A stretch of 64,000 nucleotides of DNA from Forficula auricularia. Its lineage: Eukaryota > Arthropoda > Insecta > Dermaptera > Forficulidae. This document shows, piece by piece, positions 523-61,438 of this stretch. The position numbers were made by a program, and so were the translations under genes. The DNA lies in assembly GCA_024734495.1 (NCBI GenBank), contig JALMQS010000618.1, positions 62,001-126,000 on the forward strand. The letters are read 5' to 3'. Position 1 is the stretch's first letter. Each line of letters starts with the position of its first letter. Under the pieces are notes generated by a model. The model had not been told where the DNA came from, did no database searches, and saw only the letters and a program-made list of their open reading frames with translations.

Positions 523-549
523 TTTCGTCGACTTTGCCGACTTCTTCAG
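523..549 (-). ncRNA. Hammerhead-like core module
   Basis: Read on the minus strand: CTGAAGA, one A, stem GTCG/CGAC, then GAAAC. It lies in the left arm of the 447-1140 palindrome. No cleavage has been shown, and the extra base before stem II departs from the canonical hammerhead, where position 10.1 is G paired to C11.1. Confidence 0.4.
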
Positions 550-1039
550 GGCTTCTACAATTATAAGAACATTCTTGATATGAATTTACAAAAGTACAGT
601 TTGAATTCAAAAACAAACATGTATCAATAGTTTACCTACCAAATAGTCATGTCACACATTCGTCTAAATTTTCTTATTCTTTTCGTTACCATTGAAGGCC
701 ATCAGAATATAATTTTCAAAAAATATTTGGCACATTCACAAAAAACACAATTTTTCTCTTTATAATAACAAGGTTGCCTTATTTTGTATATATGTGATTT
801 CTGTTCTGTTGTATTAATGAAATTGTTATTATAAAGAGAAAAATTGTGTTTTTTTGTGAATGTGCCAAATATTTTTTGAAAATTTATTCTGATGGTCTTC
901 AATGGTAACGAAAAGAATAAGAAAATTAGACGAATGTGTGACATGACTATTTGTAGTAAACTATTGATACATGTTTGTTTTTGAATTCAAACTGTACTTT
1001 GTAAATTCATATCAAAATGTTTTTATAATTGTAGAAGCC

Positions 1040-1066
1040 CTGAAGAAGTCGGCAAAGTCGACGAAA
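1040..1066 (+). ncRNA. Hammerhead-like core module
   Basis: CTGAAGA, one A, stem GTCG/CGAC, GAAACGTTGG. It is the plus-strand partner of the 523-549 module in the palindrome and is identical in core to 54362-54388. Confidence 0.4.
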
Positions 1067-1140
1067 CGTTGGTGGATAAATAAAAAAGTCACACATAAAA
1101 AACTTGTCCTTATTTTCCCAATATAAACTTTCAAATTATA

Positions 1141-2474
1141 AATTAAATTATGGACGAAAATCATAATAATTGACAATAAAATGGAAAAACTTCTCTCCTA
1201 TAGTCGTGACTCTTCAAAGTGTTCTGCAAAATTTCTTAAAGTATTAACTCATTAATTAACTATGAAAGTTTTCAAAATGTTAATAATTTGTTTATATGTA
1301 ATTAAAGAATTGATTTTTTTTCCTTTTCCAATAAAAATTGATTCGGATTTCTCGTTTTTTTCAATTCCTTATCCTCTGTTTTCGATCTTAAAGCTTAATC
1401 CATTGTCTCATCACGTGTTTGTTTTATGTGGCTCTGTTCCTCGTCCTTCCCTCTCCATCCCACACTGTATTATCTATTTTATTTTTTCCTGGAGTGTGCT
1501 AATGCGTTAAATTATGTTTCAGCAGCAACAGCAACAACATTCATGCAAGTCATGATGATATTATTATCAAAATAGAAAAACAGTCCGGAGTCACAGACCG
1601 AAATCCAGAAGTCAACGAAAGACGAATAGAGAGACCCCGGGCGTCAGGTGGGGACAGTGAGGAGACAAGTTTTTTTTTTAAGTAACATTGTGTCAAACTG
1701 ATGGAAAAAGTGTGAGCGAGTTCTTTTCTCGCTATTGTAAGAAATCTACCATATACAGGTGGGATTAATCGGTGTAACATAAAGCTTACCTATATAAATA
1801 TAACAGAATCAAATTATGGAAGCATCACCAAAATCTTCTTTTGAGTATTATAGAACAGCATTTTTCAAACTATGCTCCACAGAGCAAAAATGGGCCAAGA
1901 AGTCTGTCCTTGTGGTCCTTCACAAAAAAGAGAAACAAAAGAAACAACAAAATTCAAAAGAATAGATTATCTCACTATATAGCTGAAAATCTTCGAGTTT
2001 GGAAATTACACATGGCAATCGTCTTTTAATTTATTTATCTTCCTTCCGACTACAAGCTCTACTCTCAGCAACAAAGAAGAAGGATCAAACGCACTGACCC
2101 TGGTGCTTCTCGTCATCTTTTCATCAGAATAAATATGCCAAAAAATGCTAAATTTGCTTTCTAAGGAACAAGAGTAAGGTGGTTCGCAAGCTATTTTAGC
2201 TTATAAAAGTGGTCCCCTGCTTCAAAAAAGCTTGAGGAACGATGTTATGAGCATGAATAAAGGGTTCAGAAGTTCAAAAATAATTCTTTGGGGTCCATTT
2301 ACTGCGGAATCCAAGAATTATATAAAGCTTTGGTCCTCTGAGGATAAATTTCTGGTTACTTGCCTGATTTAGTTGTTCAAAACTTACCACCTGGTATAGG
2401 TAGTGGAAATGTCATGAATATATCTTACGTTTCGATTATAGGCCACCGATGGCTTATCTATAAAACACTCAATA
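1141..2474. other. No gene; one GC-richer patch and one coding-like trace
   Basis: The first part is AT-rich. A less AT-rich patch at 1505-1780 resembles nothing I know. From about 2030 to 2460 the base use looks more coding-like, and one frame can be followed with several stops, but I recognise no family. It could be the remnant of a larger mobile element or a chance composition shift. Confidence 0.3.
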
Positions 2475-2482
2475 TAATACAG

Positions 2483-2791
2483 CAGTGTTCTTCAACCTTT
2501 GACATCCCGCGAAACCCTTTGTTGGGACAATTTTTTTTATGGAACCCTTCGTTCAGTAGCACACTCATATTTTTTTTTTTTGAGGGTGGGGGTATCGTAT
2601 TACATATTACATGTTATGAACAATGTGCGTCACTCCCTTTGTAATAAAAACTTTAAATAAGATATAATTTTGCATTTATTCAAACAAAATATCTCTCTAG
2701 TTGTGAAACCGGGTTAATGTTCGAATTTTAGCATTGACTCGCGGAACCCCTAAAGCCTACGGTTCCGCGGAACACAGGTAGTAGAAATCTG
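2483..2791. mobile_element. hAT-type MITE, 309 bp
   Basis: The element starts CAGTGTTCTTCAACC and ends in a decayed inverted copy, GGTAGTAGAAATCTG. It is bounded by the 8-bp duplication TAATACAG (2475-2482) / CAATACAG (2792-2799), 7 of 8 identical. Subterminal CGCGGAACC-type motifs sit at the right and a related CGCGAAACCC at the left. An 8-bp duplication with CAG ends is the hAT hallmark. It has no coding content, so it depends on transposase made elsewhere. Confidence 0.85.
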
Positions 2792-2799
2792 CAATACAG

Positions 2800-4456
2800 C
2801 ATAGATTAATAATCTGTAGTACATTTATAAGTAGAACACTGAGATGTAACAAAATAATAATTTAATAGTTCACTCTTAGTTTTACAAATATGTGAACGAT
2901 CACATATTATAGTTAGTGCTGTAACCATGATAATCTGTTCAATCTATGACCAAATATCATAACATCATACTCCTGAAAAAAGTACGAATTAAAAGAAATT
3001 TCCTAGGTGGTACATAAATTTTTAGCAGTTTATTTAAAAAGGTTGGAAATTCCTGCTATATAAGAAGAGTTGCAAAACAGTCGTTCTAAATTTGTCTTTT
3101 GTAGAAAAAATTAAGTTGGGTTTTTAGTGAATATACCCATAATCCTACAATATCAGTTTTCAAGTATCTATAATGATTGAAAAAGGCATAAAATCGTATG
3201 TTTTTTATGTATAATCTTTGAATATTTTCGATTAAAATAATTCAAATTAAATTTAATTAATCTCCCTGTTCCAAACCAGAAAATCTTCCTTTCTGAATAG
3301 GTTTTGAAATGAGAATTTAAATATAAGGACGATATGCACAGTTTCGGTTCCTAGTTTGAAAAAAATAATAATTAATTGAATTTTTATACTCCTTTTCGAT
3401 TTAAACGGTTAATTAAATAAAATTGAACATTTTCACGTGATATTATCAATTTAAATTTTACAATTTTATAGATTCAATAATGTGAAAAGATTTTCATTTG
3501 TAAGAGTAAATAAATTCGTCCCATTTGTAATTTCTCCTGCCCTTTCCGTCAATTAATACATATTAAAACTATGTTGATTAGAAATATAACTAGGTATTTA
3601 ACATATGATTATTCTTTATGGTTAGGGAATAATTTTAATTAAACATGATAGATTCTCATCACGCATTTTCTTCTTTTCCGAGACCACACACAAAAATTCG
3701 GGCAAAAAAACATCACCAACAGCCGTCTAATATAGTAATTAAGAGGAATTTAATTAGCCCTTAATTTGAGATAGGATTAAAATTCTTAGAAAAACATCTG
3801 ATAAGTCAATATTTTTTTATTGATGAGTAGTGGATGAGAAGATCTTCATTCTCATCCGTTCTCGATCTGTTTTTTGGAGAAATTTGCATATAAACCGCAT
3901 AAAAAGCATTTCCACGTCCGTTTCGGACTTGGAAAATTAATTTCAAACGAGTGGTCAGAAACAAAATAAGTAATTAATTAATAAGTATGTACATATTCGT
4001 ATATATGGAGGATTTGATTTTGATTATACCATTTTTTTCTTTTTGAGTATTTGATGAGAAAATTTGATGTGCTTGGTGAAATATTCAACAAAACAAATAC
4101 TCAAAGAGGATATGTTATTAGAGATCGATTAAAAAAGTAGTAATGACAATTAGAGTGCAAGTTAGGTTTGCTTGTATTTTATTGAAGTAATTAAGTACTA
4201 GTAAAGGAATCGAGAACGTTAACGAGACTTTTTCAGCTCAAATCGGAGAATTAGAGTTAAAGAAAATAGATAATCGATATGTATTGAATTTAAATGTTTT
4301 TTTGTTATTTGTTTACTCAACCTACAAAATTAATTGATATAATATAAATATATGTAATGTTTTGTGTTCTATTAATTGATTCTGTATTTTTTTTCAGTTC
4401 AGAAAATACCTGATTTTAATTTTCTTCTTCTACCATATTTGTTTCGATTAGATTTA
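2800..4456. other. AT-rich stretch, nothing recognised
   Basis: I see no open frame of note, no terminal repeats and no RNA gene. Short inverted words such as GAGTATTTG/CAAATACTC near 4045-4103 are the only structure. Confidence 0.5.
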
Positions 4457-4662
4457 GGGCCAGTTGTAAGTCGGTTGGTAAAGTCTTTGTAAAAGTTGAC
4501 AAAGTGTAAAACTTTAGAATTCACCTTGTGCCTTGGCCGGATGGCCAATCAGATGACACGCATTTTCATCTTATTGGTCATCCCGCCGGACACTAACGTG
4601 AATTCTAAGGTTTACCCTTTGTAATCAACTTTTACAAGACTATCAACCGACATAACTGGCTC
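4457..4662. mobile_element. PIF/Harbinger-type palindromic MITE (diverged copy)
   Basis: The left end GGGCCAGTTGTAAGTCGG and right end CCGACATAACTGGCTC are inverted copies, and the similarity continues inward past TAGAATTCAC toward the centre. TTA precedes the left end; the right flank is AAA, so the duplication is decayed. Related copies lie at 46809-46901 (half), 53557-53750 and 60203-60368. TWA duplications and GGGCC-type ends are typical of PIF/Harbinger MITEs. Confidence 0.7.
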
Positions 4663-5193
4663 AAAAGTATTTTCTTCAGAATATTGTCCTCGAAAAATTA
4701 TTAGTTTAAATTCTTGTATACTAGTATGTTGATTTACAAGTATCTTCTATTATAAAAGCGCTTATGCTGTCTGTCGCGATCCACTCATTTAAAACCCACA
4801 AATAGTTTATGTCAAATTTATTAAAATTAGAAAATTTAAATTATTATTTTAAAATCCACGAATGTTCAGGATCAAAAAATCAAGATTTAGGAAGATTCCC
4901 TCCGGAGGCGGGCTTTGCAGCTGTTTTACAATAATTTAAGTGGTAAGTGAGCGCTTTTGATCCACTGGTGATTATATGGAGGTGCCATCTTATGATATAA
5001 TATTTTTGATTCAGGAGTGTATATGTATGGTGTGTTAGTGTGTAAGCCACGATAAAAGAGCATGTTGACATCATCAACAATTTGCTGGTTTACTTGGGGT
5101 TAATCGAGGGGTGAACCGCGACCTAATACCGTGTACACCTACTTCTACTTCCACTCTCATTTTAGAGTAGAAGAAAATAGATAAAGGGGCATT
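4663..5193. other. Unclassified flank; left arm of an inverted pair at 5089-5150
   Basis: A segment around GGGGTGAACCGCGA (5108-5121) reappears inverted at about 6178-6240, on the other side of the hAT element. Removing the hAT element would bring the two arms close together, so the hAT element probably jumped into an older short palindromic repeat. Confidence 0.5.
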
Positions 5194-5201
5194 ATCTAAT
5201 G

Positions 5202-6161
5202 CAGGGGTTCCCAACCGGTGGTACGCGTACCACTGGTGGTACGCAGGAACGTTTCAGGTGGTCCGCGTGTTCAACAGTCATCGCAGCCAGTGGACAAAAT
5301 AAACTCCTTCAAGAGAAAGTTGGTCCTGTTTTATTCACAAATACAGGAGGAGAATTTATTTACATTTCCCACTCTATCATCATTTTTTGAAGAAAATGAA
5401 ATATCTCCAAAAACCAGATGTGGTTGCAGATATCATTGTTCACTTGGAAGGCCTTCAAAAAATCTTTAAGAAGTATTTCTCTGAAGATTATTCAAAAGTG
5501 GACTGGATCAGAAACCTTTTTAGGGAACCTCACCAAATGAATTTGAACTAAAAGAAAGTTTTATCGATCTTGCAGAAGATAGTTCCTTGAAAAGATTATT
5601 TTAAAGAGAAATCTTTAATTAACTTCTGGATCGGATGTAAAACCGAGTACCCTCTGACCTTCCGGCAAGCTCTGCTATTTTTGATGCCATTTGTTACGAG
5701 TTACTTGTGTGAGAGTGGATTTTCTGAACTCGTGTAGATAAAAATAAACATAGAAGTAGAATAAGTGTCGAAGAGGACTTAAGAGTGAAGATAAGTTCCA
5801 TTAGTCCTAATGTTGATATTTTAATCACAGGCAAACAACAACAAGTTTCGCACTAAAGACTATAAAAGTATATTTTGTATGATGAATGATGATTAATTTT
5901 TTGCTGAGTTTGTACTAATTTTTTATTTGTATGTTTTTAGACCTATGGGTAATAAATAAAACTGTAAATTAATATCATTTAATCTTCTTATTTCTCCTTT
6001 ATTATAACCATGTTATAAATAAACAAATATCTAACCATTGAATATGAAGTTTTCTCAGGAATTTAATTTAAAAAATAAAAAAAATATTTAGGTCTGGTGG
6101 TACGCCAAAATTTCTCAAAAAATCAAGTGGTACGCAGGCGCAAAAAGGTTGGGAACCCCTG
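5202..6161 (+). mobile_element. hAT (Charlie-like) element, 960 bp, internally deleted
   Basis: It has perfect 15-bp terminal inverted repeats, CAGGGGTTCCCAACC and GGTTGGGAACCCCTG, and a perfect 8-bp target duplication ATCTAATG (5194-5201, 6162-6169). GGTGGTACGC-type subterminal repeats lie next to both ends. The interior holds the remnant of a ZBED-like transposase (separate entry). Full-length relatives are several times longer, so this copy has lost most of its gene. Confidence 0.95.
5396..5856 (+). pseudogene. Decayed hAT transposase, C-terminal dimerisation region
   Basis: Three blocks in different frames match the end of ZBED-type hAT transposases. The first (from 5396) opens with MKYLQKPDVV. 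The second (5663-5737) reads MPFVTSYLCESGFSELV near its end, the signature of the hAT C-terminal dimerisation domain. The third (about 5744-5856) contains SVEEDLRVKISSI and ends in QVSH before a stop. Frameshifts and in-frame stops separate the blocks, and the BED finger and most of the RNase H-like catalytic part are missing. It cannot encode an active enzyme. Confidence 0.85.
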
Positions 6162-6169
6162 ATCTAATG

Positions 6170-8589: not shown

Positions 8590-10084
8590 TAAATTATATT
8601 AATGAATTAATTGTTAAAAACTTTTAGTAAATTGGAGTAAAAGTTAAAAACTTATTCAAGACTCGGTAACTTTATGCAAATTTTATTGATATGGCAATCT
8701 TTTGCCCATGAATCGTTTCAGCGAGCGAATTGAAACTATAATCGACATAGAGTTGTGGTTTAGTGTGTTAAGTTTCAGTGTATTTTATTTAATTTCAATA
8801 GCTATATAACTTTTAAAATGAAAGAAACTATAATAGAAAAACATTAAACTCGAAATAAGTACCTATGGCAAAAATGTAGTTTAATCAGAAATCGGAGACA
8901 AAATTGAAATTTTTCAAAGACTCGGTACTTATACTTTCCGCAGTTGCAATTTTTTGATAGAGTATAATTTGAGGTATAAAAGTGTTACTTGGTATAAAGT
9001 TTCAGCTTATTTATACTTTTATTTTTTACTGAAATTGAATGCAATAAGAGGCCCAACAGGAAGAAGCAATACCTATGGATCTCGAAAGACCCATACATTA
9101 CCGAATAGAAGAGTAATATGTAGACCAAATTTCAAAATATTAGTAGTAAAAGTATGCGTTCAAAAGCTTATTTTATAAAAATACAATTTTTTTTGCATTT
9201 TTCAAAGCGAAGCTCTAAATATAGAAAACAAAAAATCTAACCAATTCATAGTTTTGAAAATATAAACGTTATGACATCTGAACGAACTTTCTACGACTTT
9301 GTGTGACTCTGACTTACAATTTCCCGAATCTTATAATACCATCTTTAGTCCTTCAAGACTGAAGACCATTTCTTTTTTTGGAAATCTTGGTGATGCACCT
9401 TCTCAACACGCCCATTTTAACATTAATATCATGGGAAATAAAATAAATAAATATAATAGGGTACTTTTCTTAAGGATAACCTTAGCATCTGTCAAAATCG
9501 AAATGATATTTCAATTTAAGTACCTATATGTCAATGAGATCACTGAGATCGGATAAGAATAAAGATTCGCCTTGAAATCTGTATTGCGATCCAAATACAA
9601 TAAATCCATGTTCCACTTTACATTCTGCTTATGATTACGAATCCCCAATTATCCCACAGAATGTAGGCTACATTGTGCTGGACTGATGGATGGACGGCCA
9701 GTTGATTGGATGCTTGGGCTGAAGGAGGAGTGGATAACGTTCCATTAAAATGAATGACGGAATTTCGATAAAAGAAAATATCAGGTTCGGACAAGATCAG
9801 TAAATATTAATTATTTCGAATCAGAGTCACGACTTGGCCGTCTCGGTACCACTCGAGCCCCTCCTCGTATGGATGCGATGGCCCATTTCTGATTTCTATG
9901 TCAAACATAGAGAAATTTTAATGGAAATGAGTTCTATAAGAAAAATATATTAAAAAAGAAACTTTTTAAAATGCACAAAGAATCTAAAAATAGTTTTTTT
10001 ATAGTAAGAAATCAATAAAGTTTTCCTCTGATAGATTCAAATAAACGTATACATATACTCATTATTCATATAAAGAACGAATAT
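8590..10084. other. No gene; faint copy of the 50-kb tandem unit
   Basis: Around 8655-8790 the order ACTCGGTAACTT, AATTTTATTG, AGCGA, TTGAAACT follows the order of blocks in the 50.3-51.3 kb array, so a diverged single unit is likely. A patch at 9650-9900 is less AT-rich and apparently unique. Nothing else is recognised. Confidence 0.35.
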
Positions 10085-10480
10085 TAATATAGACGTTTCG
10101 GCCTGAATTTATCGGCCTATCTTCAGTTTATTGGGATATGGTATACTACATATTACCTACAAGTACATATGATTGTTCCTGGTTTTGTCAGCAATAGGAA
10201 ATTTAACGTTCATTTATTTAGTGTTGTAATGGAATCCAAGATGAGATTATCTTATACAAATTTGTTTTATATATAAAAATAAATAAATCATATGACCTCA
10301 TATTAGAGGTCATTTACAACCCTCCACGACAACACTAAATGTATATGAAGTTAAATTCCTTGTTGTTGACAAAACCAGGAACAATCACATGTACTTACGG
10401 TAATATGTGTATAATTCCCAATAAATCGAAAATGGCCCGATAAATTCAGGCCGAAACGTCTTTAATCTGGGAAATTTATT
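10085..10480. repeat. Palindromic element, arms 10085-10240 / 10320-10480
   Basis: The two arms are inverted and share GACAAAACCAGGAACAATCA, ATGTACTT and AAATTCAGGCCGAAACGTCT. The left arm carries a hammerhead-like module on the minus strand (10096-10126: CTGAAGA, TA, GGCC/GGCC, GAAAC). The right arm has a decayed version. A third, single-arm copy is at 16272-16475. Confidence 0.75.
10096..10126 (-). ncRNA. Hammerhead-like core module
   Basis: On the minus strand: CTGAAGA, TA, stem GGCC/GGCC with a 10-nt loop, GAAACGTC. The spacer before the stem is two bases here. It is predicted from pattern only. Confidence 0.35.
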
Positions 10481-16271: not shown

Positions 16272-16475
16272 GCAGTAAATATATGAACTTAACTTTCTTA
16301 TTGTTGAGAAAACCATGAACAATCACATGTACTTATGGTAATATCTGTATAATTCCCAATAAAGTGAAGATGGGCCGATTAATTCAGCCCGAAACGTCTT
16401 TATTCTGGGAATTTTATTGGACTCGGTGCATTCTTGCTTTGGCTGAATAACTCCTTCAACCCACTACGAATTCAT
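16272..16475. repeat. Single-arm copy of the 10.1-kb palindrome
   Basis: It follows the right arm of 10320-10480 from AACAATCACATGTACTTA through CCCGAAACGTCTTTATTC to GGCTGAATAACTCC. A hammerhead-like module with the first core base changed (GTGAAGA) lies at 16364-16394, with a GGGC/GCCC stem before GAAAC. Confidence 0.75.
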
Positions 16476-17656: not shown

Positions 17657-18650
17657 TATATAATTTTAAAGAAAATTTTTTTTATTGATTGTTAAATATT
17701 CTATAAAACAATCTGTAAACGTTTAATCAAACCCAAACGTTTCGAGAGAATTTTTCCCTTTATCAATAGAAATTTTAAATTAAAAAAAAAAAAATTGCTT
17801 TTTTTTAAGATTTAAAAAGCAACACTAGCTAGTATAAGTAATGGAAATAAAAGACACAGCAGCTATTTAGGTGAACGAGCTTTGAAGGATAGAATTGGTG
17901 TCACTAAATATCGAATCAATAGCCAGATTACAATGGCTTACACGAGTTCGCTTGTGCAATAATTAAAGCCGTAATAATACACAAGGACAATACATCTGAA
18001 TTGGCAGAGTGGAAATATCGCTCGGCTGGGCAACCATTCTAATCCGATTGAAGCAAAAGTCACAACAGATCATAACAACTAGACTCCTGGGCACCAATTT
18101 ACGATTTTATTTGTCTACTTACTATTCCAGGCGACAACTATCACATGAATCAAATTCTACAATGAAACGAATAGGGAAACATTCAAATAGGAGTCTTTGC
18201 TGGAGGATAAACCACATTCTCTTTTTGTGATTTATGTACATTTATTGCACAAAATAAATTAGTAAAATGATCAAGCTTTCAATCTGATTAAAAAAAATTT
18301 AGAATGTGTTTAACAGACTACGTGACTTTACCTTACCCTGGCCTTCTTCTGGAAGCAGTGATTTTTAAGTCATTTAGTGTAAAGACATGCCAAATATTTT
18401 CATATCTAGACAAAAAAGTGATGGTTGAAAAATAATATTACAACAAAACTTCTTGATAATTTTTACTTCAGTTATCCAATAAAGTCCAATTCTTATCCTC
18501 CTTCTACTTCAGGCGACTTATTTTTGCCCCATTTATCCCAGGATCCTACAGAGTAATTATGCATGCAAAAATGGTAAAATCAGCTTCGAAATTCCTATTA
18601 GTTTTTGATGTACAGTGCTATTAGGTACAACATATTGGGCACTTTGCACT
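17657..18650. other. No gene; decayed hammerhead-like module at 17740-17766
   Basis: On the minus strand TTGATAA, A, a GGGA-type stem and GAAACGTTTGG match 61068-61098. A less AT-rich patch at 17860-18240 contains a 73-codon frame (18009-18230) that I do not recognise and regard as chance. Confidence 0.4.
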
Positions 18651-19841: not shown

Positions 19842-20201
19842 TTTTTCATTAAATTGAAGGGTTGGTTGAGAAAAAAATAAAATTGAAAATAGTATTTAAT
19901 ATAATCATTAATTCAAAATAGTTTCTAGTTCACTAGTAAACGTTTTTATAAATTGTTGCTATATATGTATATATGTGTGTGTGATTGTAATGAATTGTGT
20001 GATCTATCTATATTGAAGATTTAAGAATGAATGTTTCATGTGAAATGACAAATTCCGGTTCTTGAACGAGATAACTACTGAGGATGGTCGACCAGTGGTG
20101 ACCGAAACTGTATAGTAATCAATTAAATAATTCTAATAGTTATTAAAATTATTGTTTTATTATTTTTGTGACAAAACCAACCCTTCAATTTAATGAAAAA
20201 T
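19842..20201. repeat. Inverted-ended element carrying a hammerhead-like module
   Basis: The ends TTTTTCATTAAATTGAAGGG and CCCTTCAATTTAATGAAAAA are perfect inverted copies. The inside contains a TG/TA microsatellite (about 19960-19982) and the module CTGAGGA-T-GGTC/GACC-GAAACTG at 20078-20107. Class unknown. Confidence 0.7.
20078..20107 (+). ncRNA. Hammerhead-like core module
   Basis: CTGAGGA, T, stem GGTC/GACC (loop of 10 nt), GAAAC. The variable core position (N7) is G here, which the hammerhead fold allows. AATTAAATAAT follows downstream, as at other copies. Confidence 0.4.
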
Positions 20202-34541: not shown

Positions 34542-34768
34542 GGCCTACGCTGCGAAAAATGAACGAGGAGAGGATTAAAAAAAGAAATTCGATAATTCAT
34601 AAAGACAAAAGGTAATAGTTTGGGTTCAGGGATCAGTAGCTTAGTGGATATAGGAGGTAAACCTCTTATGACAAAGCATTGCAGTACATATGCAAAGATA
34701 CCGGGTTCGAGCCCCGGCTGATCCTTTTGTCTATAATAAAAATAATCTTTTCTTCGTTCCCTAAATTT
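34542..34768 (+). repeat. tRNA-containing repeat, copy 2
   Basis: About 97% identical to 1-227 by eye, including leader, cloverleaf and tail. Because it sits inside the hAT element, both of its ends can be estimated here, which sets the repeat length at about 227 bp. Confidence 0.8.
34630..34724 (+). tRNA. tRNA-like cloverleaf with 31-nt D-loop, copy 2
   Basis: Same as 89-183 except for one change in the variable loop (AGATA instead of AGATC). Acceptor, D, anticodon and T stems and both Pol III boxes are intact, and CTTTT-type T residues follow. Keeping all 21 stem pairs in both copies suggests either a recent common source or selection on structure. Confidence 0.6.
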
Positions 34769-34957
34769 AAAATTTGTTATTAATAAAAATATTTTTTTCT
34801 TTCACAAAGTATTTAGAAAATACGTATTTTGTATCTAGTATTTCAAAAACCATTTACAAAAGTATCTTGTACAAGATATCTCAAATACCAAAAGTATCTT
34901 GTAACTTGTATTCCAGATACTTTTTATGAGGTTATCTTGTACATCTCTGATCAGCTG

Positions 34958-37436: not shown

Positions 37437-38135
37437 GGAATATTATTAAAAAATGTGTGATTATAATTCTGATTCTTACACCCAAATACAAAAGAAATTA
37501 GTTTCTATCTAACAAATTCAATCACATTACAAATTTTTGGTACTTTTTGAAATTTTTAATTTATTCTTAATTTTTAATTCATTTAAAACCCCATAACTTA
37601 ATCAGAAATTAAAATTTTTATTTTATTTATTTATTTATTTATTATTCAATGGGCTGATAAGTGATATTATTTAAAAAGATGGGATTAAAATTCTGATTTC
37701 TACATCCAAATACAAAAGAAATTAGTACTTATTTAACGAATTCAATCACATCACAAATTTTTCGTACTTTTTAAAATTTTCAATTTATTCTTAATTTTTC
37801 TTTCATCTAAAACCCTATAACTTATTCAGAAATTAAAATTTTTATTTTATTTATTTATTTATTTTTATTATATTTATATTATATTTATATTAAGTGATAT
37901 TGAGAAAAAGGGTGTAATTAAAATTCTGATTATCCTACACCCAAATACCAAAGAAATTATTATCTAATAAATTCAATCACATCACAAATTTTTGATATTT
38001 TTTAAAATTTTCAATTTATTCTTAATTTTTCTTTTAAACCCCATAACTTAATCAGAAATTAAATTTTTTTATTTTATTTTATTTATTTATTTATTTTTAT
38101 TCAATGCGCTGATAAGTGATATTATTAAAAAAAGA

Positions 38136-38988: not shown

Positions 38989-39058
38989 ATTAAGTAATGG
39001 AGAGGGATTCAGCCAATGTAGCCTCTGCTGAATAAAAAACTCCCAATTATGGAAAACG

Positions 39059-39090
39059 TTTCGGCTTTAATTAAATAATGCCATCATCAG
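39059..39090 (-). ncRNA. Hammerhead-like core module
   Basis: Minus strand CTGATGA, T, stem GGC/GCC, GAAACG. It has the canonical hammerhead 5' heptamer CTGATGA. Confidence 0.4.
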
Positions 39091-39110
39091 TTCCTAACAG
39101 CTCTTAGGAA

Positions 39111-39142
39111 CTGATGATGGCATTATTTAATTAAAGCCGAAA
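39111..39142 (+). ncRNA. Hammerhead-like core module
   Basis: CTGATGA, T, stem GGC/GCC with an A/T-rich loop, GAAAC. It is the mirror partner of 39059-39090; a transcript from either strand would carry a core. Confidence 0.4.
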
Positions 39143-39211
39143 CATTTTCCATAATTGGGAGTTTTTATTCAGCAGAGAGACCCATTGGCTGAATCCTCTC
39201 CATTACTTAAT

Positions 39212-45597: not shown

Positions 45598-45985
45598 TTT
45601 TTTTAGTAAGAGGGGTTCTTACCAATTAAAACGAATTTCCCTGAATAACTGTGTGACAACTAGAATTTACTGTTGTTGGTTGAGTTTGGTCCAAAAGGTC
45701 TAGAATCTTCATTTTTGACCTTCCGTATCATTTTAAAAGACAATGTCAAATGTTGCCCCTCATTAGTTGTAGGGGATGTAATTTTTGACATTTTCGTTTA
45801 AAAAAGTTTGAAAATAAACACACAAAATGAGGCGGAAGGTCAAAAATAAAGATTCTAGACCTTTGGACCAAACTCAACCAACATCAGTAAATTCTAGTTG
45901 CCACAAAGGTATTCAGTGAAACGCGTTTTAACTAGTAAGAGACCGTTTTCACTAAAAAACGGGTATTTACTGCAACATAAATATA
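45598..45985. repeat. Foldback family X, copy 3
   Basis: Left tip truncated compared with copies 1 and 2. The arms include TTGGTTGAGTTTGGTCCAAA, and the centre has ATTAGTTGTAGGGGATGTAA. The right end GTATTTACTGCAACATA is intact. Confidence 0.75.
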
Positions 45986-45995
45986 ATGACTATAG

Positions 45996-46022
45996 TTTCG
46001 AAGATTTAACTTTCATCATCAG
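45996..46022 (-). ncRNA. Hammerhead-like core module
   Basis: Minus strand: CTGATGA, T, imperfect stem GAA(A)G/CTTC, GAAAC. It is the partner of 46143-46169. Confidence 0.35.
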
Positions 46023-46142
46023 CATTTTAAATTAGAATATTTTCTAATGGGTTCAAATACCAACAAGCAAGCTGGCCACAATCTTTTGTTATGTGATCAG
46101 CTTGCTATAACAACAAGACGAATTTATGTCTAATTAAAAAGA

Positions 46143-46169
46143 CTGATGATGAAGGTCAAACCTTCGAAA
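46143..46169 (+). ncRNA. Hammerhead-like core module
   Basis: CTGATGA, T, stem GAAGG/CCTTC with a 5-nt loop TCAAA, GAAA. The 5-bp stem and full CTGATGA make this one of the best-formed copies. Confidence 0.45.
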
Positions 46170-46182
46170 TATGGTCTCTAAC

Positions 46183-46654
46183 AATTAAATTACAAATTAA
46201 AGGGGACAATAAAAGATAATAATAATATGGGCCGATTTTTTTTTTGCTCCCAAGTGTATTTTAAAAAGATCTCTCTGTGTGTGTATGTGTGTGTGTGTGT
46301 ACGGTCAAATATTGCATATTTCTTAGTTTACAAATTAAAAAAAAAAAACAGAAAAAATAAATAATTAAATAATTATATTAATAACGAATTCCATATATAG
46401 TACTTGTTGTGTAGGTATATTTAGATTATGAGCTGATTGAAATCGGATCCTGCATACTTGACGTTTTCTCTTGATATATTTTTTTAAATAATTAATTCAT
46501 ACACATTACATACGCACGCAATCTTGGAACGTAATGATCTGAAAATATCAATTTCTCGAAAGCAAGACTTCCATTAATATGTATGTATAAAAAAATTGTT
46601 ATTAATATTTTTATTTTTTTATTTTAATTCCATTTTAAAGAGAGAATTGTTTTT
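46183..46654. other. No gene; GT microsatellite
   Basis: A GTGTGT repeat at about 46275-46300 and AT-rich flanks. Nothing else. Confidence 0.5.
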
Positions 46655-53490: not shown

Positions 53491-53556
53491 AAATTCCGGC
53501 CAAAATATCCCTGTGATATATTTATTCAATCTCCCACCGACGTTTCGGACCCTTAA

Positions 53557-53750
53557 GGGCCGGTTGTATGTCGCAAAGTAAATGCTTTTACCACTAACAC
53601 AGGGTAGATGGTAAATGAAGGGACTGGGAGGGCCAATCAGATGCCAGGACTGTCAGTGCCTATCATCTGATTGGCCATCCCAATCCCTCCATTTATCATC
53701 TACTCTGTGTTAGTGGTAAAAAGCATTTACTTGCGACATACAACCGGCCC
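53557..53750. mobile_element. PIF/Harbinger-type MITE in array junction
   Basis: GGGCCGGTTGTATGTCGC and GCGACATACAACCGGCCC ends, with TAA on both sides (53554-53556, 53751-53753). Adjacent monomer junctions read CCCTTAAG uninterrupted, so the 3-bp duplication is confirmed by an empty site. The arms (GTAAATGCTTTTACCACTAA...) are almost the full element. Confidence 0.9.
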
Positions 53751-54042: not shown

Positions 54043-54262
54043 GTGGTGTGGGTTTTAGGTGAAACATGATATTAATTAATAAAGTAAAGGGAGTCTAGTT
54101 TCACAATGAAAGAAATAAAACTCAAAGAGTCTTATACAGACCGTTTTTAATCTGTAAACTCCTGATGATGGACTAATAACCCGAAATATATTGAGTCTGT
54201 ATAAACCTCTTTGAGTTTTATTTCATTCGTTGTGAAACTACACTCACTTTACTTTATTAATT
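54043..54262. mobile_element. Palindromic insert in monomer M2, with module
   Basis: Other monomers run straight from TATTAAC into TAGCC/AAGCC. Here about 0.23 kb intervenes, with inverted ends AATTAATAAAGTAAAGGGAG / CACTTTACTTTATTAATTA and inner AAAACTCAAAGAG / CTCTTTGAGTTTT. It carries the module at 54162-54186 (CTGATGA-T-GG...CCC-GAAA). Confidence 0.7.
54162..54186 (+). ncRNA. Hammerhead-like core module
   Basis: CTGATGA, T, short GG/CC stem, GAAATATATTGAG. The stem is only 2-3 bp, the weakest of the CTGATGA set. Confidence 0.3.
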
Positions 54263-54285
54263 ATTTTTATTAACAAGCCTATGCT

Positions 54286-54315
54286 CTGAAGAAGGATACC
54301 ATCGAAGATCCGAAA
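54286..54315 (+). ncRNA. Hammerhead-like core in monomer M2
   Basis: CTGAAGA, A, stem GGAT/ATCC, GAAACGACAGCTG. Equivalent cores in sister monomers: 54650-54679 (GGAT/GTCC, with a G-U pair) and 55561-55590 (GG/CC). M5 and M1 have lost CTGAAGA. Confidence 0.4.
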
Positions 54316-54356
54316 CGACAGCTGAATAAATAAGTACTATTTATAAGGACTATTTG

Positions 54357-54475
54357 AAGCCCTGAAGAAGTCGGCAAAGTCGACGAAACGTTGGTGGATA
54401 AATAAAAAAGTCACACATAAAAAACTTGTCCTTATTTTACCAATATAAACTTTCAAATTATGAATAAATAAGTTC
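54357..54475 (+). repeat. Single-arm fragment of the 447-1140 element, in M2
   Basis: From GAAGCCCTGAAGAAGTCG to CTTTCAAATTATGAATAAAT, matching 1034-1140. The module is at 54362-54388. Next to it the monomer resumes with AGTTCGAATTGCC, so this is an insertion by target-primed or template-switch-like joining. Confidence 0.75.
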
Positions 54476-54815
54476 GAATTGCCAATAGAAACAAAATCAC
54501 GAGAGGTTGTCATCATTTAGATCAGAGATGGGATGAATTATTTTATATTTATTTATTCATCCTTCCACCCATTTCGGACCCTTAAGGAGTTCGAATTAAA
54601 TGGCGAAAGTTTTTTTGGAAGATTTGATATTTATTAACTAGACTATGCTCTGAAGAAGGATATCATCGAGGGTCCGAAACGACAGCTGATTAAATATAAG
54701 TTCGAATTGCCGATAGAAACAAATTCACGAGGGGTTGTCATCATTTAGATCCGAGATGGAATGAATTATTTTATATGTATTTATTCTACCTTCCACTGAT
54801 GTTTCGGACCCTTAA

Positions 54816-55489: not shown

Positions 55490-55917
55490 TTAAGGTGTTC
55501 GAATTAAATAGCGAAAGTTTTTTTTGGAAAATTTGATAATTTTATTAACTAGCCTAGGCTCTGAAGAAGGATAATTTCGAAAACCCGAAACGACAACTGA
55601 ATAAATATAAGTTCGAATTGCTGATATAAACAAATTCACGAGAGGTTGTCATCATTTAAATCCGAGATGAAATTAATTATTTTCTATCTATTTATTTAAC
55701 CTTCCACCGACTTTTCGGACCCTTAAGTTGTTCGAATTAAATGGCGAAAGTTTTTTTGTAAGATTTGATATTTATTAACTAGCCTATGCTCCGGAAGGAT
55801 ATCATCGAGGGTCCGAAACGATAGCTGAATAAATATAAGTTCGAATTGGCGATAGAAACAAAATCACGAAAGGGTGTCATCATTTAGATCCGAGATGAAA
55901 TGAATTATTTTATATGC

Positions 55918-58204
55918 CAGATGGATTGTTTCCACCCCCTCAGGAATCGTACACTGGTGACAAAATTAGCAATTCGCTAGCTAAAAGACTACCCTGTGGG
56001 GTGAAAACAACCCTGCTGACAGATAAAATAATCAATTCCATCTTGGATTTAATAAATGACAACCTCTCGTGATTTTATTTTATTTAAATACTGTTTCTAA
56101 CGTCGTAATTAATTTGACTGGAATTTTATTTGAATTTATTTCTAGAGAATATAACATTTATTGGTGTCGTCATCTTCACATTTAATAATTGAGATATTTT
56201 TATATGCAAGTACATATTGCCGATAGATCAGTCTTTTTAAAGAATTCACTATAGATTTCCCTGTACTAAATAGCCCTGCTGACATGTAATAAAAATTATT
56301 AATGACAGATTAGATTTAGTAGATGTGAATCCCTCGTAATTTATTTAGAGATATTTTTAAGTTCGATTTATTTTCCTATACCTATATATTAAATAAATAT
56401 CACCTGCTTTTGTGGAATAATGAAATGGTAAAAACACTACATTTAATTCTGAAAATGGTGATAAATGTTTATTTTACTTGGTTCTGCTGCCTCCCAGGCG
56501 GGCGTAGTATTAAATTCAAAATATATTTCTAAAGATTGTCGTTTCAACATTACACTTCACTACTCTCTGGTCTCTTGCATAAGAAAAATTTTAAAAATCT
56601 TATCCTGTGAATGTAACCCATCAGCTTCTAAATCTATATGAAAATCGCAAAATTTTATAAAATTTATAGACAACAAATTCCATGTAATTTGTGATAAATA
56701 TAGAAAAATCAAAAAATGAATAAGGCAGTCCTAGGGACTGCCGACAAAAGTGAAAACTTTTAAAACTATGAAATAACAGCGATTTTTTTTTTTGTTTTTT
56801 TAATTTACATATTATTAAATTTTAATTTTTGATACTAGTATTAATTTGAAATCACCACTTTTCTAGAAACACCACTTCCAATGTCCAATCTGTGGATGGT
56901 TAGGCTCATTCGATAGGTAGAGGCACCAAAATTTTATCAAAATCCCTTAACAGGAAGTCCCTTTTTCCCTGAATTTTCCGAAAATTCTTCCCCCTTAACG
57001 GAAATTTTCTCCCGCCGCTATTCCAACAGCAAGCATCTTCCCCGCACCCTAGAAAGCAGAAGCCCCCCTCCCGCTCCTAACTACTAGAAGCGGCCAACTG
57101 CACCTTTCCCTCACCCCAGCAGGCAGGCTACCCCTCTTGCCTATATTCGACCAAACAAGGAGCCATGTATATGAGCGTGACGGTCACACGAGTTAAGTGC
57201 TTTTTCCCCATCCCAAAAGTGCCCAAAGTGCCTAAAGAAGTTTTCACTTCAAAAAAATTAACATCTTTGAAAATTTTTTCAAGAAACATTACTAAATACT
57301 AAAACTCTCTAATGTATATTTATGGAATCCCAAAACGTGTATTTTCGATAAAGACATTCTGACGCCATTTTAAGTTATTGTATAACAAAGTATATTATAT
57401 TAAAAAGCAATAAAAGGGGATATTAGCCCCCTTTATCGACTCATCACTCCCCCTCCCTTTCTCCTTTTCGACTTATCTCCACTTAAAACAAATAGTATTA
57501 AGGGAGTTGGAAGAGTTGTCGAGATCTACATTCGACTTTTCAACTTGGAGTAGAATAAAAACAAACAACATCAACAACAGCTTGAGAAGTAAGAAACTTT
57601 AAGCTTGCCTTAAGTTGCACTTTTGGGAAACTTGGTATCATTCGAGTTGTGTCGGGAAGTTGGCGAGATGATCATCTTACTGATTGATTCTTTATGTCAA
57701 TAGAAAGTACTTGCGAAGAAAAAGAAGCTTTCAATTTGTTCTCTTTCTGTAATATTAACAAAATTAAACATAATAATACAACCGAAAGATATTTTGATTC
57801 TCATGCACTAGATTAGGAGAAAAAAGAGTGAGCCAGCCAGATCCTATGGGAGGTGCAGGGGTCTGTAGCCCTGAGGCCCGGTCTCTGAAGGAGCCCGGGG
57901 CGTTCAGCAAATTAGTTTAAATTTATGGGTATTTTTATTCAAAGTATTTTAAATTTTTATCACATTTCAGATAGCACACTCGCTCTAGAAGATGTCTTAT
58001 TCAGTTTTTATTGTCTTTAAGATATCTAGAAGATCTCCTAGTGCCTAGAAAACATCTTCTAGACCAAGAGTGCTAACAGGGACATTAAATAAAATACTAT
58101 ATAATATATTTTAATAAATATTTCAATAAGAGTGAAGGAAGATTTAAATCCCGAGTTCGAGCAAGCCCCGTCTCTATGAATGGAAATATAGTAGAAACAA
58201 TTAA
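55918..58204. other. Mosaic fragments, then no gene
   Basis: 55970-56350 carries further fragments of the array modules (CCCTGCTGACAGATAAAATA, GACAACCTCTCGTGATTTTA, and CCTGCTGACATGTAATAAAA). 56640-57900 is unclassified, with a C-rich patch at 56990-57200 and hairpin GGCAGTCCTAGGGACTGCC (56725-56743). A small TIR pair (TAGCACACTCGCTCTAGAAG at 57973 and its inverse ending 58077) marks a 105-bp MITE. Confidence 0.45.
57973..58077. mobile_element. Small TIR element, about 105 bp
   Basis: TAGCACACTCGCTCTAGAAG and CATCTTCTAGACCAAGAGTGCTA are inverted with a few mismatches. Internal CTAGAAGAT-type words repeat. Non-coding. Confidence 0.5.
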
Positions 58205-58806
58205 GGAGGTTCGGGACAGCTTATCTACTGGTTGATCTTCGAAAAATCTTTTGTATTTCTGCAGAGTGACAACGTCTGCATACTAAATTTTTTAATAAAT
58301 TATTGTTAAACATGAGGTTAATTTCGAATAAAAATCTTTGTTTTGATAATATTCATAAAAAGAATATTAAGATAATTTTTTCTCATTATAAAAACATTTA
58401 TTTAACACAAAAACGATTTCAAGAAATAGAGTTGGTATTCTACATTAGTGCTTTTGTTATATTCTGTTGGCTGCAAATAAAATCTTTTTATTTTTACATT
58501 TATGAATAACTAATTAGCTAGACTGTCAAATCTATGGAAAAATGTATCATTCGATTCATAAAAGTTGAATTATTGATCTGTATAAATTTGTTGAAAATTG
58601 CATAATTTGTATAGAAGTTATAATCCTTTTAAAAGCTTGGTCCATTTACTTCCATGTTAAAAGGACAATTTTCAATAATTTATTTCTCGGTAATGGGACA
58701 GACGATCAACTTCAAAATTCGGGAATAAATATTTTAATGCATCAATAATTCGATGGTAAAAATTTGAGAATTTTCTTATAAAAATTATAAACAGTCACGA
58801 ACCCCC
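58205..58806. mobile_element. piggyBac-type MITE, copy 4
   Basis: GGAGGTTCGGGACAGCTTA and TAAACAGTCACGAACCCCC ends; TTAA on the left, TAAA on the right. Same internal sequence as copy 1. A 68-codon frame inside (58303-58509) is chance and lies in repeat sequence. Confidence 0.85.
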
Positions 58807-58810
58807 TAAA

Positions 58811-60199
58811 GGAAAAAGTGAAATCTTTTTCAAAATCGATACAGTCTCTGTAAATTTTGCAGATGGTGAGGAGGACTCACCTGTCACAGGTAGCTAGGCG
58901 TAAAGCCCCCCATATAATATTTATAAAAAATAAACTATTCAAAATTAATTTTTTGAAACATATCTTTGTTTCTTTTCATACATTTTCATCACATGAAAAT
59001 TTCTATAAAATCATAATTTTTTTGCATTTTTGATCCCGAAGTTCTGGGAGAGCCCAAAAACTATTAATTTTCCGAATGGAAATACAAACATCTTGACATC
59101 AGAACAGACTTTATATGACTTTCTATTCTTAAGATACCATGGTATCTGAATCCAGATAGAAAAACAAATAGAAAAAAATATTGATTGAAATTAATGTTTC
59201 TCCACTCTTCACATAATTAAAATAATAATAAAAATGTGTGACGTAATTTATGGACTGCCCCTTCTAAAAATTAATTTATATATAGATAGAGGTCGGAATC
59301 AAAGTTTACCTATTTTCCCACGAATTTTTTTACCTAACAAAATTTCAAAACCATTGATCATTAAATTAATAAAGATTCTTACAAATTTGTCTTTATGTCT
59401 TATCAATGAAAACTGAGAACTAAATAGATCTCTCAAATATTTTGAAAGTTATATAAGGTTCTGAACTCTCGGTATGCTAGTCTTTCTAACACTTGACTGC
59501 TTTTTTCTTTGATTTTAATTCATTGCTATGTATATATTTATTTCTGAATAATATATAATTATATTAGAACAATCAATTAAACGGATAGACATGAGAGCAA
59601 AAATTTGGAATACACATTTTTGAGCTTAAGTTTATATAATCAAGCAAATCCAAAAATTATATTAATAACATTTATTTATTTTATTTATTTCACCTTTAGA
59701 TAGATAAATTATAAACGAACGATGGTATAAATATTTACTTTATTCCCGTGTAAACTATATGGTGTAGTCTTTAGATTTAGGAATCGTGAATGAGTCAGTT
59801 GCTTAATGAAAACAAGATCACCTGACCTCATCGACGCCGACGCAAGCATCGACTGGTCATCTAGTGAAAACAAAGCCAGCCAAAACAAGATAAAACACGA
59901 ACGTCCGTGTCAAAATTAGAGTTTTATTATCAGTGAATTCAGTAATCAATGAAATATCACCTAATGATTCACTTTAAAGAATTACGAAAAATTAATTATT
60001 GTTATTGAATTCAGTAATCAATTATCACTTAATGATTCAGTTTAATGAATAACGAAAAATTAATATCTTCTAAATGATAAAAACTAATGAGATTGAAAAT
60101 TATATGAACATCTTTAAAAGACTCAAATGAAGCCAAGGTCTTTGAAAATATGGATATTCTCCAAACGCATTCACTATCAAGGAATTTAATTTCGTCGCC
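58811..60199. other. No gene; one MITE end and a two-unit direct repeat
   Basis: 59235-59262 is a lone end of the 18651-18912 family. 59929-60063 holds two direct units of about 76 bp (GAATTCAGTAATCAAT, AATGATTCA-TTTAA, ACGAAAAATTAAT). Otherwise AT-rich. Confidence 0.45.
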
Positions 60200-60202
60200 T
60201 TA

Positions 60203-60368
60203 GGATCGGTTGTATGTCGCAAAGTAAATGCTTTTTACAACTAACAAAGGGTAAATGGTAAATGGAGGAACTGGGATGGCCAATCAGATGACAGGCACTG
60301 AGATTCCATTTACCATCTACCCTTTGTTAGTTGTAAAAAGCATTTACTTTGCATCATACAACCGGCCC
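60203..60368. mobile_element. PIF/Harbinger-type MITE, 166 bp
   Basis: GGATCGGTTGTATGTCGC and CATACAACCGGCCC ends, TTA on both sides (60200-60202, 60369-60371). The central ATGGCCAATCAGATGACAGG is shared with the other copies, so the family is recent enough to align end to end. Confidence 0.9.
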
Positions 60369-60371
60369 TTA

Positions 60372-61438
60372 GAGTGTAAACCTGTTAACTCACAACAAGG
60401 AAATTTTACAGGGCAGAGAAAAAATAAACAAAATTTAATATTGTTGTTATGGAAAGAAACTATTTTTCACATTTTTTCTATAACTTACGATTGTAATTTT
60501 AAGTAGGTAGCAGTTTTACTTGTCTTTTTTTCGAACGGTAATAATATGTCATATATGATAAAAAATTGATTTAGCAGGCTTACACTCTAAGGCGATGATT
60601 TAAAAATTTCATTTTGGATAATTTAAATGAATGCTTAGATTGTGACGGAACAGAGGGAACAGGTAAAACAATATTTTTAAAATCTAGAATTTAAGAACAT
60701 AAATATTCAATTATAATAAAAAATTACAAATATACAATTCTAGCTAGCTAGGTAGCCATTTAACTAACTTGTGGGACACAATTTTGACTTTTCTAATCCC
60801 AAAATTTTAAATAAAGAGCGGAATTTAGAAAAAAAAATTAATTTTAGAAATGATCAAAGTTTTAAACAACAAAAATTCAAATTACAAAAGGTCAGATATG
60901 GACTGTATCTCTAATATTTTTCAAAAATTAAAAAAAAGTCATAAATATTTGTATTTTTAATTTGTATTAAAGGTAATTTCATCTCCAAGACTGACTGTTT
61001 TAGAAATATTTCTTTGTTTAGGATTGCTTTACATTCTTAAAGCAACTTTTTTTCTTTCAAAATTCCATTGATAAAGGGAGAAAGAAATTCTCCCGAAACG
61101 TTTGGATGTTGAATAAACGTTTTAAGATTAATTTCTATAAAATATTTATATTTATTTTTTATTTATAAAAACAATCATTAATATTTTTCAGGATAATTTA
61201 AATTAGTACTAATTTCTCCACCATATATGTAAAATATAGACGTAATTAATAATTTCTCATAAAAATTAAATTATAGAAAAAAGAAAAGTTTTTTTATTAT
61301 AAACAAAACGATCAGATGAGGTTTGATCCCGGGTTCTTCGTATGTACGTGATTGATTGGAAGTCGTTTGAATCTAGTTTCTTAAAAATACTGACAATTGA
61401 GAATCAAAAGAAAAGTTTTTGCTAAAACAACCTCGATT
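60372..61438. other. No gene; hammerhead-like relic at 61068-61098
   Basis: TTGATAA, A, perfect 7-bp stem GGGAGAA/TTCTCCC, GAAACGTTTGG, then TTGAATAAACG. Two core bases differ from CTGANGA. The minus-strand relative is 17740-17766. Confidence 0.4.

What the first reader, a model, noticed from the sequence alone, without database searches (positions are those of the whole stretch)
523..61098. A hammerhead-like core recurs in many unrelated repeats
At 13 places I read CTGANGA, a short spacer (usually one base), a 2-5 bp hairpin stem, then GAAA: 523-549(-), 1040-1066, 10096-10126(-), 20078-20107, 39059-39090(-), 39111-39142, 45996-46022(-), 46143-46169, 54162-54186, 54286-54315, 54362-54388, 54650-54679, 55561-55590. 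Relics occur at 16364, 17740(-) and 61068. Stems and loops differ between families, yet pairing is kept, and the one variable core base (A, T or G) is the position the hammerhead fold leaves free (N7). A TTTATT/AATAAA word usually follows. Hammerheads are known in Penelope-like elements and retrozymes. The departure is the extra unpaired base before stem II, where a canonical hammerhead has a G10.1-C11.1 pair. Either this is a variant ribozyme family, a relic of one, or a different structured RNA end shared by several retroelements.
Basis: partly seen in the sequence, partly recalled or inferred. Interest (0 to 1): 0.75.

Follow-up and report, generated by a model that had tools for sequence, protein, structure and literature searches.

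The report
Retrotransposon hammerhead ribozymes lacking stem III
The recurring motif is a stripped-down hammerhead (self-cutting RNA) sequence carried in the end repeats of Penelope-like retrotransposons and present in tens of thousands of copies in this genome; the kind is already known, but the paired changes seen here suggest that its catalytic fold has been kept by selection.

Summary
In detail: all 13 sites exist and the motif is far above chance (11 exact CTGANGA..CGAAAC sites in the window, 0.03-0.1 expected; 55,600 loose matches genome-wide, 126 for the reversed control).

The rest of a hammerhead is there too. A stem I follows GAA-ACGU after exactly one base (H17; C or U in 52 of 56). 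Stems I and II covary strongly. In place of a cis stem III stands a self-complementary word (24 of 30 sites in sequence not chosen by motif, background 15%), as expected of hammerheads that act as dimers. The extra unpaired base before stem II is real and nearly constant (A/U). Two of the three "relics" belong to U3-A8 families in which the core C3-G8 pair changed on both sides (6,815 sites; 85 expected if independent).

One motif family lies in the pseudo-LTR of an intact, tandem Penelope-like element. Inverted short copies of several families show that anatomy. This fits the published class of minimal PLE hammerheads. Cleavage and the dimer mechanism were not tested.

The parts
440..451 (.). 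left copy of a 12-bp putative target-site duplication (ATTGACAATAAA)
   Evidence: exact repeat with 1169-1180 at the ends of the arms
451..1139 (.). near-palindromic element: two head-to-head pseudo-LTR-like arms
   Evidence: self-alignment 92% over 700 columns
511..557 (-). hammerhead motif of the left arm (stem I GCC/GGU, stem II GTCG/CGAC, ACGU, H17=U)
   Evidence: CM R1 41.3 bits, E 6e-9
1032..1078 (+). hammerhead motif of the right arm
   Evidence: CM R1 41.3 bits, E 6e-9
1169..1180 (.). right copy of the putative target-site duplication
10084..10134 (-). hammerhead motif with A where G10.1 is expected, so that the spacer reads as two bases
   Evidence: CM R1 26.9 bits, E 7e-5
   Evidence: CM R1 24.0 bits, E 4.6e-4; sequence
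   Evidence: CM R1 26.0 bits, E 1.2e-4; core GTGAAGA
17728..17774 (-).
   Evidence: CM R1 40.5 bits (a training row); core pair U3-A8
20078..20107 (+). motif; just downstream a possible cis stem III hairpin (ACU-GUAU-AGU); no clear stem I
   Evidence: sequence; not found by CM R1
39047..39098 (-). hammerhead motif, left half of an inverted pair
   Evidence: CM R1 45.1 bits, E 5e-10
39103..39154 (+). hammerhead motif, right half of the inverted pair (ACAU instead of ACGU)
   Evidence: CM R1 38.6 bits, E 3.4e-8
45987..46030 (-). hammerhead motif of the ACUAUAGU family, left half of an inverted pair
   Evidence: CM R1 19.6 bits, E 0.0083; 75% identical over 71 columns to the pLTR of the PLE at C563
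46135..46184 (+). hammerhead motif of the same family, right half (palindrome altered)
   Evidence: CM R1 19.5 bits, E 0.0089; 85% over 54 columns to the C563 pLTR
54162..54186 (+). motif of the AUAUAU family (stem I ACUC/GAGU, H17=U)
   Evidence: sequence; the similar sites at C4:1,037,168 and C4:1,097,751 have a 9-pair stem I incl. G.U; not found by CM R1
54278..54327 (+). motif with ACGA in place of ACGU (stem I GCU/AGC)
   Evidence: CM R1 28.0 bits, E 3.5e-5
54354..54400 (+). hammerhead motif, same family as 1032-1078
   Evidence: CM R1 43.9 bits, E 1e-9
54642..54691 (+). motif with ACGA, same family as 54278
   Evidence: CM R1 26.9 bits, E 6.9e-5
55553..55602 (+). degenerate motif, same family as 54278
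   Evidence: CM R1 17.2 bits, E 0.04
61060..61110 (+).
   Evidence: CM R1 45.0 bits (a training row)

Best explanation
The motif is a minimal type I hammerhead ribozyme of the Penelope-like-element (PLE) kind, carried in the pseudo-LTRs of several PLE families. Shown by sequence: stem I, core CUGANGA (or UUGANAA), one unpaired A/U, stem II beginning G10.1-C11.1, GAA, a self-complementary A..U word in place of a cis stem III, H17 (C or U), stem I 3' strand; for one family, a position about 200 bases upstream of the first Met codon of an RT + GIY-YIG ORF; for several families, copies made of two head-to-head arms with a one-sided tail and target-site duplications. Inferred: in transcripts that hold two pLTRs, or between two transcripts, the palindromic word of one copy pairs with that of another to make stem III, and each core cuts its RNA after H17, releasing unit-length RNA for target-primed reverse transcription. 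How far cleavage matters to transposition is open.
For: Covariation on 56 sites chosen on core and CGAAACGT tail but not on pairing (48 distinct, loops cut out): 80.2% of cells paired against 51.7% shuffled; 148 cells changed on both sides against 54.8 +/- 6.0, 0 of 500 shuffles as high; sliding by one column drops the covariation score from 0.698 to 0.274 or 0.179. Stem I fits best with one base after ACGU: 49, 48 and 51 of 56 at pairs 1-3; H17 is C 29, U 23, G 4. Palindrome from A15.1 in 24 of 30 sites of the C4 stretch and window, sequence not chosen by motif, and 63 of 70 with the chosen loci, duplicates removed; background 757 of 5067 GAAA places. Core pair genome-wide: C-G 49,816, U-A 6,815, U-G 2,159, C-A 1,967; U-A expected 85 if independent. 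PLE link: 827-aa ORF with RVT_1 (61.1 bits) and GIY-YIG (26.6 bits) in a tandem of 2.9-kb units, the motif between two ORFs; motif in 4 of 7 stretches fetched at PLE ORF starts (L177-L180; not in L181-L183). A palindromic copy (L015) matches that pLTR with tail at 95.5% over 242 columns on one strand and the pLTR at 95.9% over 193 on the other. Repeats of 12 bp or more at the two ends in 10 of 17 elements against 8 of 262 mismatched flank pairs.
Against: No cleavage assay. No Rfam hammerhead model matches the window even at E<=10; RF00163 genome-wide gave no match among 73 scored of 118,820 first-look candidates, with a control that rang nowhere. The extra base departs from the textbook core. 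The pLTR family with the intact ORF has only 2 bp of stem I in the hammerhead register (3 in a register that would make H17 a G) and an alternative AGACUG/UAGUCU helix in its minimum-energy fold. Some families have broken palindromes (ACGA at 54278). In the one PLE assayed in print, the hammerhead was inactive without protein and not needed for insertion in vitro (PMC11167929, passages). Copies are related, so counts are not independent events. Motif families other than ACUAUAGU were not tied to an ORF.
Confidence: 0.85

Rival explanations
1. A hammerhead-derived but non-catalytic structured RNA: the fold is kept because the PLE protein binds it (for packaging or for placing reverse transcription), and cleavage is incidental or lost.
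For: The extra base, the short stem I in the autonomous family, the alternative fold and the published PLE whose hammerhead is dispensable for insertion in vitro and active only with protein (PMC11167929, passages).
Against: What is kept is specifically the catalytic core: C3-G8 or U3-A8 pairing (odds ratio about 80), a UH cleavage site in 52 of 56, and palindromes at the stem III position. A mere binding fold need not keep these.
Confidence: 0.2
2. Relics: the motif was a ribozyme in ancestral PLEs and the present copies are neutral debris.
For: Many fetched copies are short and non-coding, and several window copies are degenerate; no PLE coding remnant was found in the window.
Against: Neutral decay would give U3-A8 at about the product of single-change rates (85), not 6,815; a PLE with an open 827-aa RT + GIY-YIG frame carries an intact motif. 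True of many individual copies, not of the families.
Confidence: 0.08
3. A DNA-level feature of palindromic MITE-like elements (a transposase or terminal-fold signal), not an RNA motif.
For: Many motifs sit in long inverted repeats, and these copies are short and non-coding.
Against: Duplications are variable (12-19 bp in the 10 elements that have them) with a one-sided tail, as in PLEs (PMC3846280, passages), and the same pLTR lies between RT ORFs in direct tandem. DNA terminal repeats do not predict hammerhead covariation.
Confidence: 0.02

Closest known systems
Minimal hammerhead variants of Penelope-like elements (Cervera & De la Pena 2014; Lunse, Weinberg & Breaker 2017; neither paper held, known here from reference lists and from passages of reviews PMC7761336 and PMC6155905)
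   Same: Hammerhead core with helix III lacking, dimer action proposed, location in PLE pseudo-LTRs and as dispersed copies in thousands per genome.
   Different: Here a nearly constant extra A/U between A9 and G10.1 and abundant U3-A8 families. Whether the published consensus already has the extra base could not be checked.
Hammerhead of the Anolis PLE PAc (PMC11167929, passages seen)
   Same: Stems I and II, core and cut site at the pLTR/ORF junction of an RT + GIY-YIG PLE; tail.
   Different: There the ORF begins at stem II and the cut site is 26 bp past the start codon; here, in the C563 family, H17 lies 197-198 bases upstream of the first Met codon.
Natural hammerheads with U3-A8 (Perreault et al. 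2011, PMC3088659, section 8 read whole)
   Same: Compensatory change of the C3-G8 core pair.
   Different: There several examples; here 6,815 sites, with at least five stem II types among the 100 listed, in motifs without a cis stem III.
Metazoan retrozymes (PMC7229834, passages seen)
   Same: Type I hammerheads in small non-autonomous retroelements; weak helix III in amphibians.
   Different: Retrozymes are short direct tandem repeats with canonical type I hammerheads; these are single copies or inverted pairs, with one direct array seen.
PLE architecture in Adineta vaga (PMC3846280, passages seen)
   Same: pLTRs in direct and inverted (head-to-head) order, 31-bp tail, short target duplications.
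   Different: Here ORF-less inverted pairs of arms, with 12-19 bp duplications where found; in the 200-kb stretch not chosen by motif, 3 such pairs and 19 unpaired motifs (strict scan).

Membership tests
Canonical hammerhead ribozyme (textbook / Rfam) | Core CUGANGA and GAAA | tested here: met
Canonical hammerhead ribozyme (textbook / Rfam) | Stem II stacked directly on A9/G12 (G10.1-C11.1 adjacent) | tested here: not met
   one extra base: of 61 sites taken on core and tail, 52 pair best at spacer 1, 1 at spacer 2, 0 at spacer 0, 8 have no stem of 3; the genome-wide count for spacer 0 did not complete
Canonical hammerhead ribozyme (textbook / Rfam) | Stem III formed in cis | tested here: not met
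   only a palindromic word of four to ten bases and H17 separate GAA from stem I; 20078 is a possible exception
Canonical hammerhead ribozyme (textbook / Rfam) | Match to an Rfam hammerhead model | tested here: not met
   window: 0 at gathering, none at E<=10; genome: RF00163 no match among 73 scored candidates, silent control, RF00008 did not complete
Minimal PLE hammerhead | Stem I and stem II with hammerhead core | tested here: met
   also 111 (rows chosen for stems)
Minimal PLE hammerhead | Stem III diminished, self-complementary so that dimers can form | tested here: met
   24 of 30 sites in sequence not chosen by motif, 63 of 70 in all
Minimal PLE hammerhead | UH cleavage triplet | tested here: met
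   C 29, U 23, G 4 of 56
Minimal PLE hammerhead | Located in PLE pseudo-LTRs | tested here: met
   4 of 7 stretches fetched at PLE ORF starts, one PLE family; other motif families not tied to an ORF
Minimal PLE hammerhead | RNA cleavage as a dimer | not testable with these tools
   needs an in vitro assay
Minimal PLE hammerhead | Published consensus at the base after CUGANGA | not tested
   defining papers not held; [quoted passage not shown]
Penelope-like element (EN+) | Single ORF with RT and GIY-YIG | tested here: met
   RVT_1 61.1 bits, GIY-YIG 26.6 bits in 827 aa, one ORF read; 245 related proteins, 120 listed, 15 of these name an organism, 11 of them insects
Penelope-like element (EN+) | pLTRs in tandem and/or inverted, tail, target duplication | tested here: met
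   (duplication of 12 bp or more in 10 of 17)
Retrozyme | Short direct tandem repeats with canonical type I hammerhead | tested here: not met
   motif lacks a cis stem III; mostly single copies or inverted pairs; one 5-copy direct array seen

The most novel reading that the evidence does not exclude
This genome holds a distinct hammerhead sub-class: a fixed inserted A/U between A9 and G10.1, stem III made only between two copies through family-specific palindromes of 4 to 10 bases, and a core pair that alternates between C3-G8 and U3-A8 across families. The alternation shows that cutting itself, not just folding, is under selection in living PLE lineages.
Probability: 0.3. Interest if true: 0.55.

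Novelty: new member of a known kind. Interest (0 to 1): 0.4.

Why it matters
[quoted passage not shown] A single genome with about 57,000 exact matches (C-G plus U-A patterns), thousands of them with a compensated core pair, gives comparative evidence that the catalytic fold is maintained. It also supplies natural variants (inserted base, palindrome length, U3-A8) with which dimer cleavage can be tested directly.

Tried and rejected
Rfam scans of the window gave no hammerhead; the best matches at E<=10, to microRNA families, lie on foldback elements or other inverted repeats. A search of viral contigs for relatives of the PLE protein found none. No PLE coding remnant was found in the window by tblastn with two PLE proteins at E<=0.01. 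A first idea, that the motif at C4:1,121,447 and the PLE ORF at C4:1,124,954 form one element, was dropped: 3.5 kb apart, ORF fragmentary. Dimer folds by free energy favour a symmetric duplex and say nothing about a dimeric hammerhead. Literature searches for the sequence, for inverted-repeat PLE hammerheads and for C3U/G8A found nothing closer in their listings. Genome-wide counts with spacer 0, of a matching spacer-1 pattern and of G3-C8 cores were asked but did not complete. An earlier palindrome count, 71 of 79, held duplicate places and loci chosen by motif; it is replaced.
Full report
WHAT WAS CHECKED. The window is G000:C566:62001-126000 of an unnamed 1.06-Gb genome in 845 contigs, by its content a eukaryote. 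The 13 sites are there as described. The motif is far above chance in the window and has 55,600 exact loose matches in the genome against 126 for the reversed pattern.

THE FOLD. I collected 56 distinct sites from the window, the first 28 fetched loci (chosen from the motif listing) and a 200-kb stretch of contig C4 (not chosen by motif), on [CT]TGANGA..CGAAACGT only. The pattern fixes the C of pair 1 of stem II, nothing else of either stem. Stem II pairs with a spacer of one base in 54, 56, 50 and 50 of 56 at its first four pairs; with spacer 0 in 0, 37, 39 and 13. Stem I pairs in 49, 48 and 51 of 56 at its first three pairs when exactly one base follows ACGU; with none in 13, 42 and 14, with two in 40, 11 and 25. 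That single base is C in 29, U in 23 and G in 4: the H17 of a hammerhead. The spacer base is A in 41 and U in 15. On the gap-free alignment of these rows (stem II loops cut out; 48 distinct), 148 cells are changed on both sides against 54.8 +/- 6.0 in shuffles, 0 of 500 as high, and every slid version is far lower. A second alignment with loops (16 family representatives, chosen for having both stems and a C-G or U-A core pair, so biased) gives the same picture. On 61 sites (duplicates removed; loci L001-L021, C4 stretch and window; U3-A8 cores included) the best spacer is 1 in 52, 2 in 1, 0 in none, and 8 have no stem of three.

STEM III. I took sites with core, spacer 1, stem II of at least four pairs and GAAA, without looking further. 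In the C4 stretch and window, the sequence from A15.1 is self-complementary in 24 of 30; with the chosen loci added and duplicates removed, in 63 of 70; the background is 757 of 5067 GAAA places. The chosen loci were listed for a CGAAACG tail, so the first figure is the fair one. The words differ by family: ACGU, ACAUGU, ACUAUAGU, AUAUAUAUAU; the window's 54162 site adds AUAUAU. A cis stem III is absent, except perhaps at window 20078 (ACU-GUAU-AGU). Self-complementary words at this place are what a dimeric hammerhead needs. Dimeric action is published for the newt and viroid hammerheads (PMC6155905, passages) and, by its title, for PLE variants (Lunse et al. 2017, seen in reference lists; its content is recalled only).

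THE CORE PAIR. The third, 16364, has a single change at position 3. [quoted passage not shown] With one pattern (XTGANYAWGN{4,26}CGAAACGT) the genome holds C-G 49,816 (reversed control 3), U-A 6,815 (control 15), U-G 2,159 (control 17) and C-A 1,967 (control 3). If the two positions changed independently, 85 U-A sites would be expected; the odds ratio is 80. The 100 listed U-A places show at least five stem II types. Such covariation was reported in 2011 in several natural hammerheads (PMC3088659, section 8 read whole), so it is known in kind; here it occurs in large families. Related copies are not independent events, and the number of independent switches was not determined.

WHERE IT SITS. 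Pfam GIY-YIG gave 3,423 first-look candidates in the genome, of which 150 were scored, all over the cut-off; six lie in open frames of 858-864 aa, and at C563 three matches lie 2.9 kb apart in tandem. I fetched short stretches at seven expected ORF starts. Four (L177-L180) carry the ACUAUAGU-family motif upstream of an ORF start, H17 being 197-198 bases before the first Met codon. L177 lies between two tandem ORFs; in L178 a partial ORF copy stands between the motif and the long ORF; L179 also has the inverted pLTR beside the direct one; three (L181-L183) have no motif. The one ORF that I read whole, at C563 (827 aa from the first Met), has RVT_1 and GIY-YIG. The motif is thus in the pLTR of a PLE with an open frame. 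The window copies at 45987-46184 are diverged relatives of this pLTR. For the other motif families I did not find the autonomous partner.

THE SHORT COPIES. In the fetched loci, the C4 stretch and the window, a strict scan gave 18 inverted pairs (minus then plus) and 42 unpaired motifs. These include overlapping loci, and I picked many of the loci because they showed pairs; in the C4 stretch alone there are 3 pairs and 19 unpaired motifs. For 17 of the 18 pairs arms could be defined: 10 of 17 have an exact repeat of 12 bp or more at the two ends (12-19 bp) against 8 of 262 mismatched pairs of flanks. In these 10, one end carries about 29-47 bases outside the arms, the other almost none: a one-sided tail. 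For L015 the element matches the C563 pLTR with tail at 95.5% over 242 columns, and the pLTR again on the other strand at 95.9% over 193. This is the PLE anatomy described in Adineta vaga (inverted head-to-head pLTRs, 31-bp tail, short duplications; PMC3846280, passages) and explained by internal initiation of reverse transcription in PAc (PMC11167929, passages).

MECHANISM. Shown: sequence, fold by covariation, place of one family. Inferred: cleavage after H17; that it acts as a dimer through the palindromes; that in tandem or read-through transcripts it frees unit-length RNA. Against: no assay; the family with the open ORF has only two base pairs of stem I in the hammerhead register and a competing helix; PAc did not need its hammerhead for insertion in vitro and its hammerhead was inactive without protein.

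NOVELTY. Minimal type I hammerheads lacking helix III in PLEs, in thousands per genome, are known (PMC7761336, PMC7229834, PMC6155905; passages). [quoted passage not shown] I could not see the defining papers, so whether the nearly constant extra A/U is already in their consensus stays open. I file this as a new member of a known kind.

Noticed in passing
C4:1,022,593-1,023,097 (locus L151): Five direct copies of the hammerhead motif at about 110-125 bp spacing: a small tandem array, like a satellite or retrozyme, unlike the inverted pairs and single copies seen elsewhere.
   Followed up: no
window 89-184(+): A tRNA covariance match of 48.3 bits in the permissive Rfam run that the gathering run and ARAGORN did not report; it lies in a 233-bp repeat that recurs at 34542-34774 with 97% identity, so perhaps a tRNA-derived SINE.
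   Followed up: partly
window 39018-39181, 45683-45874, 53608-53699: Matches below gathering score to microRNA precursor families (MIR7807, MIR7504, MIR171_1) on long foldbacks; probably spurious consequences of inverted repeats.
   Followed up: no
window 37440-38132: Tandem array of a 224-bp unit, 3.1 copies, 81% matches; no CM R1 match lies in it.
   Followed up: no
window 20078-20107(+): A site with a possible cis stem III hairpin just downstream (ACU-GUAU-AGU followed by A17); stem I is unclear.
   Followed up: no
window 54278-54327, 54642-54691, 55553-55602 (+): A local direct-repeat family whose three motif copies all have ACGA in place of ACGU, so the A15.1-U16.1 pair of a dimer would be broken in all three.
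   Followed up: no
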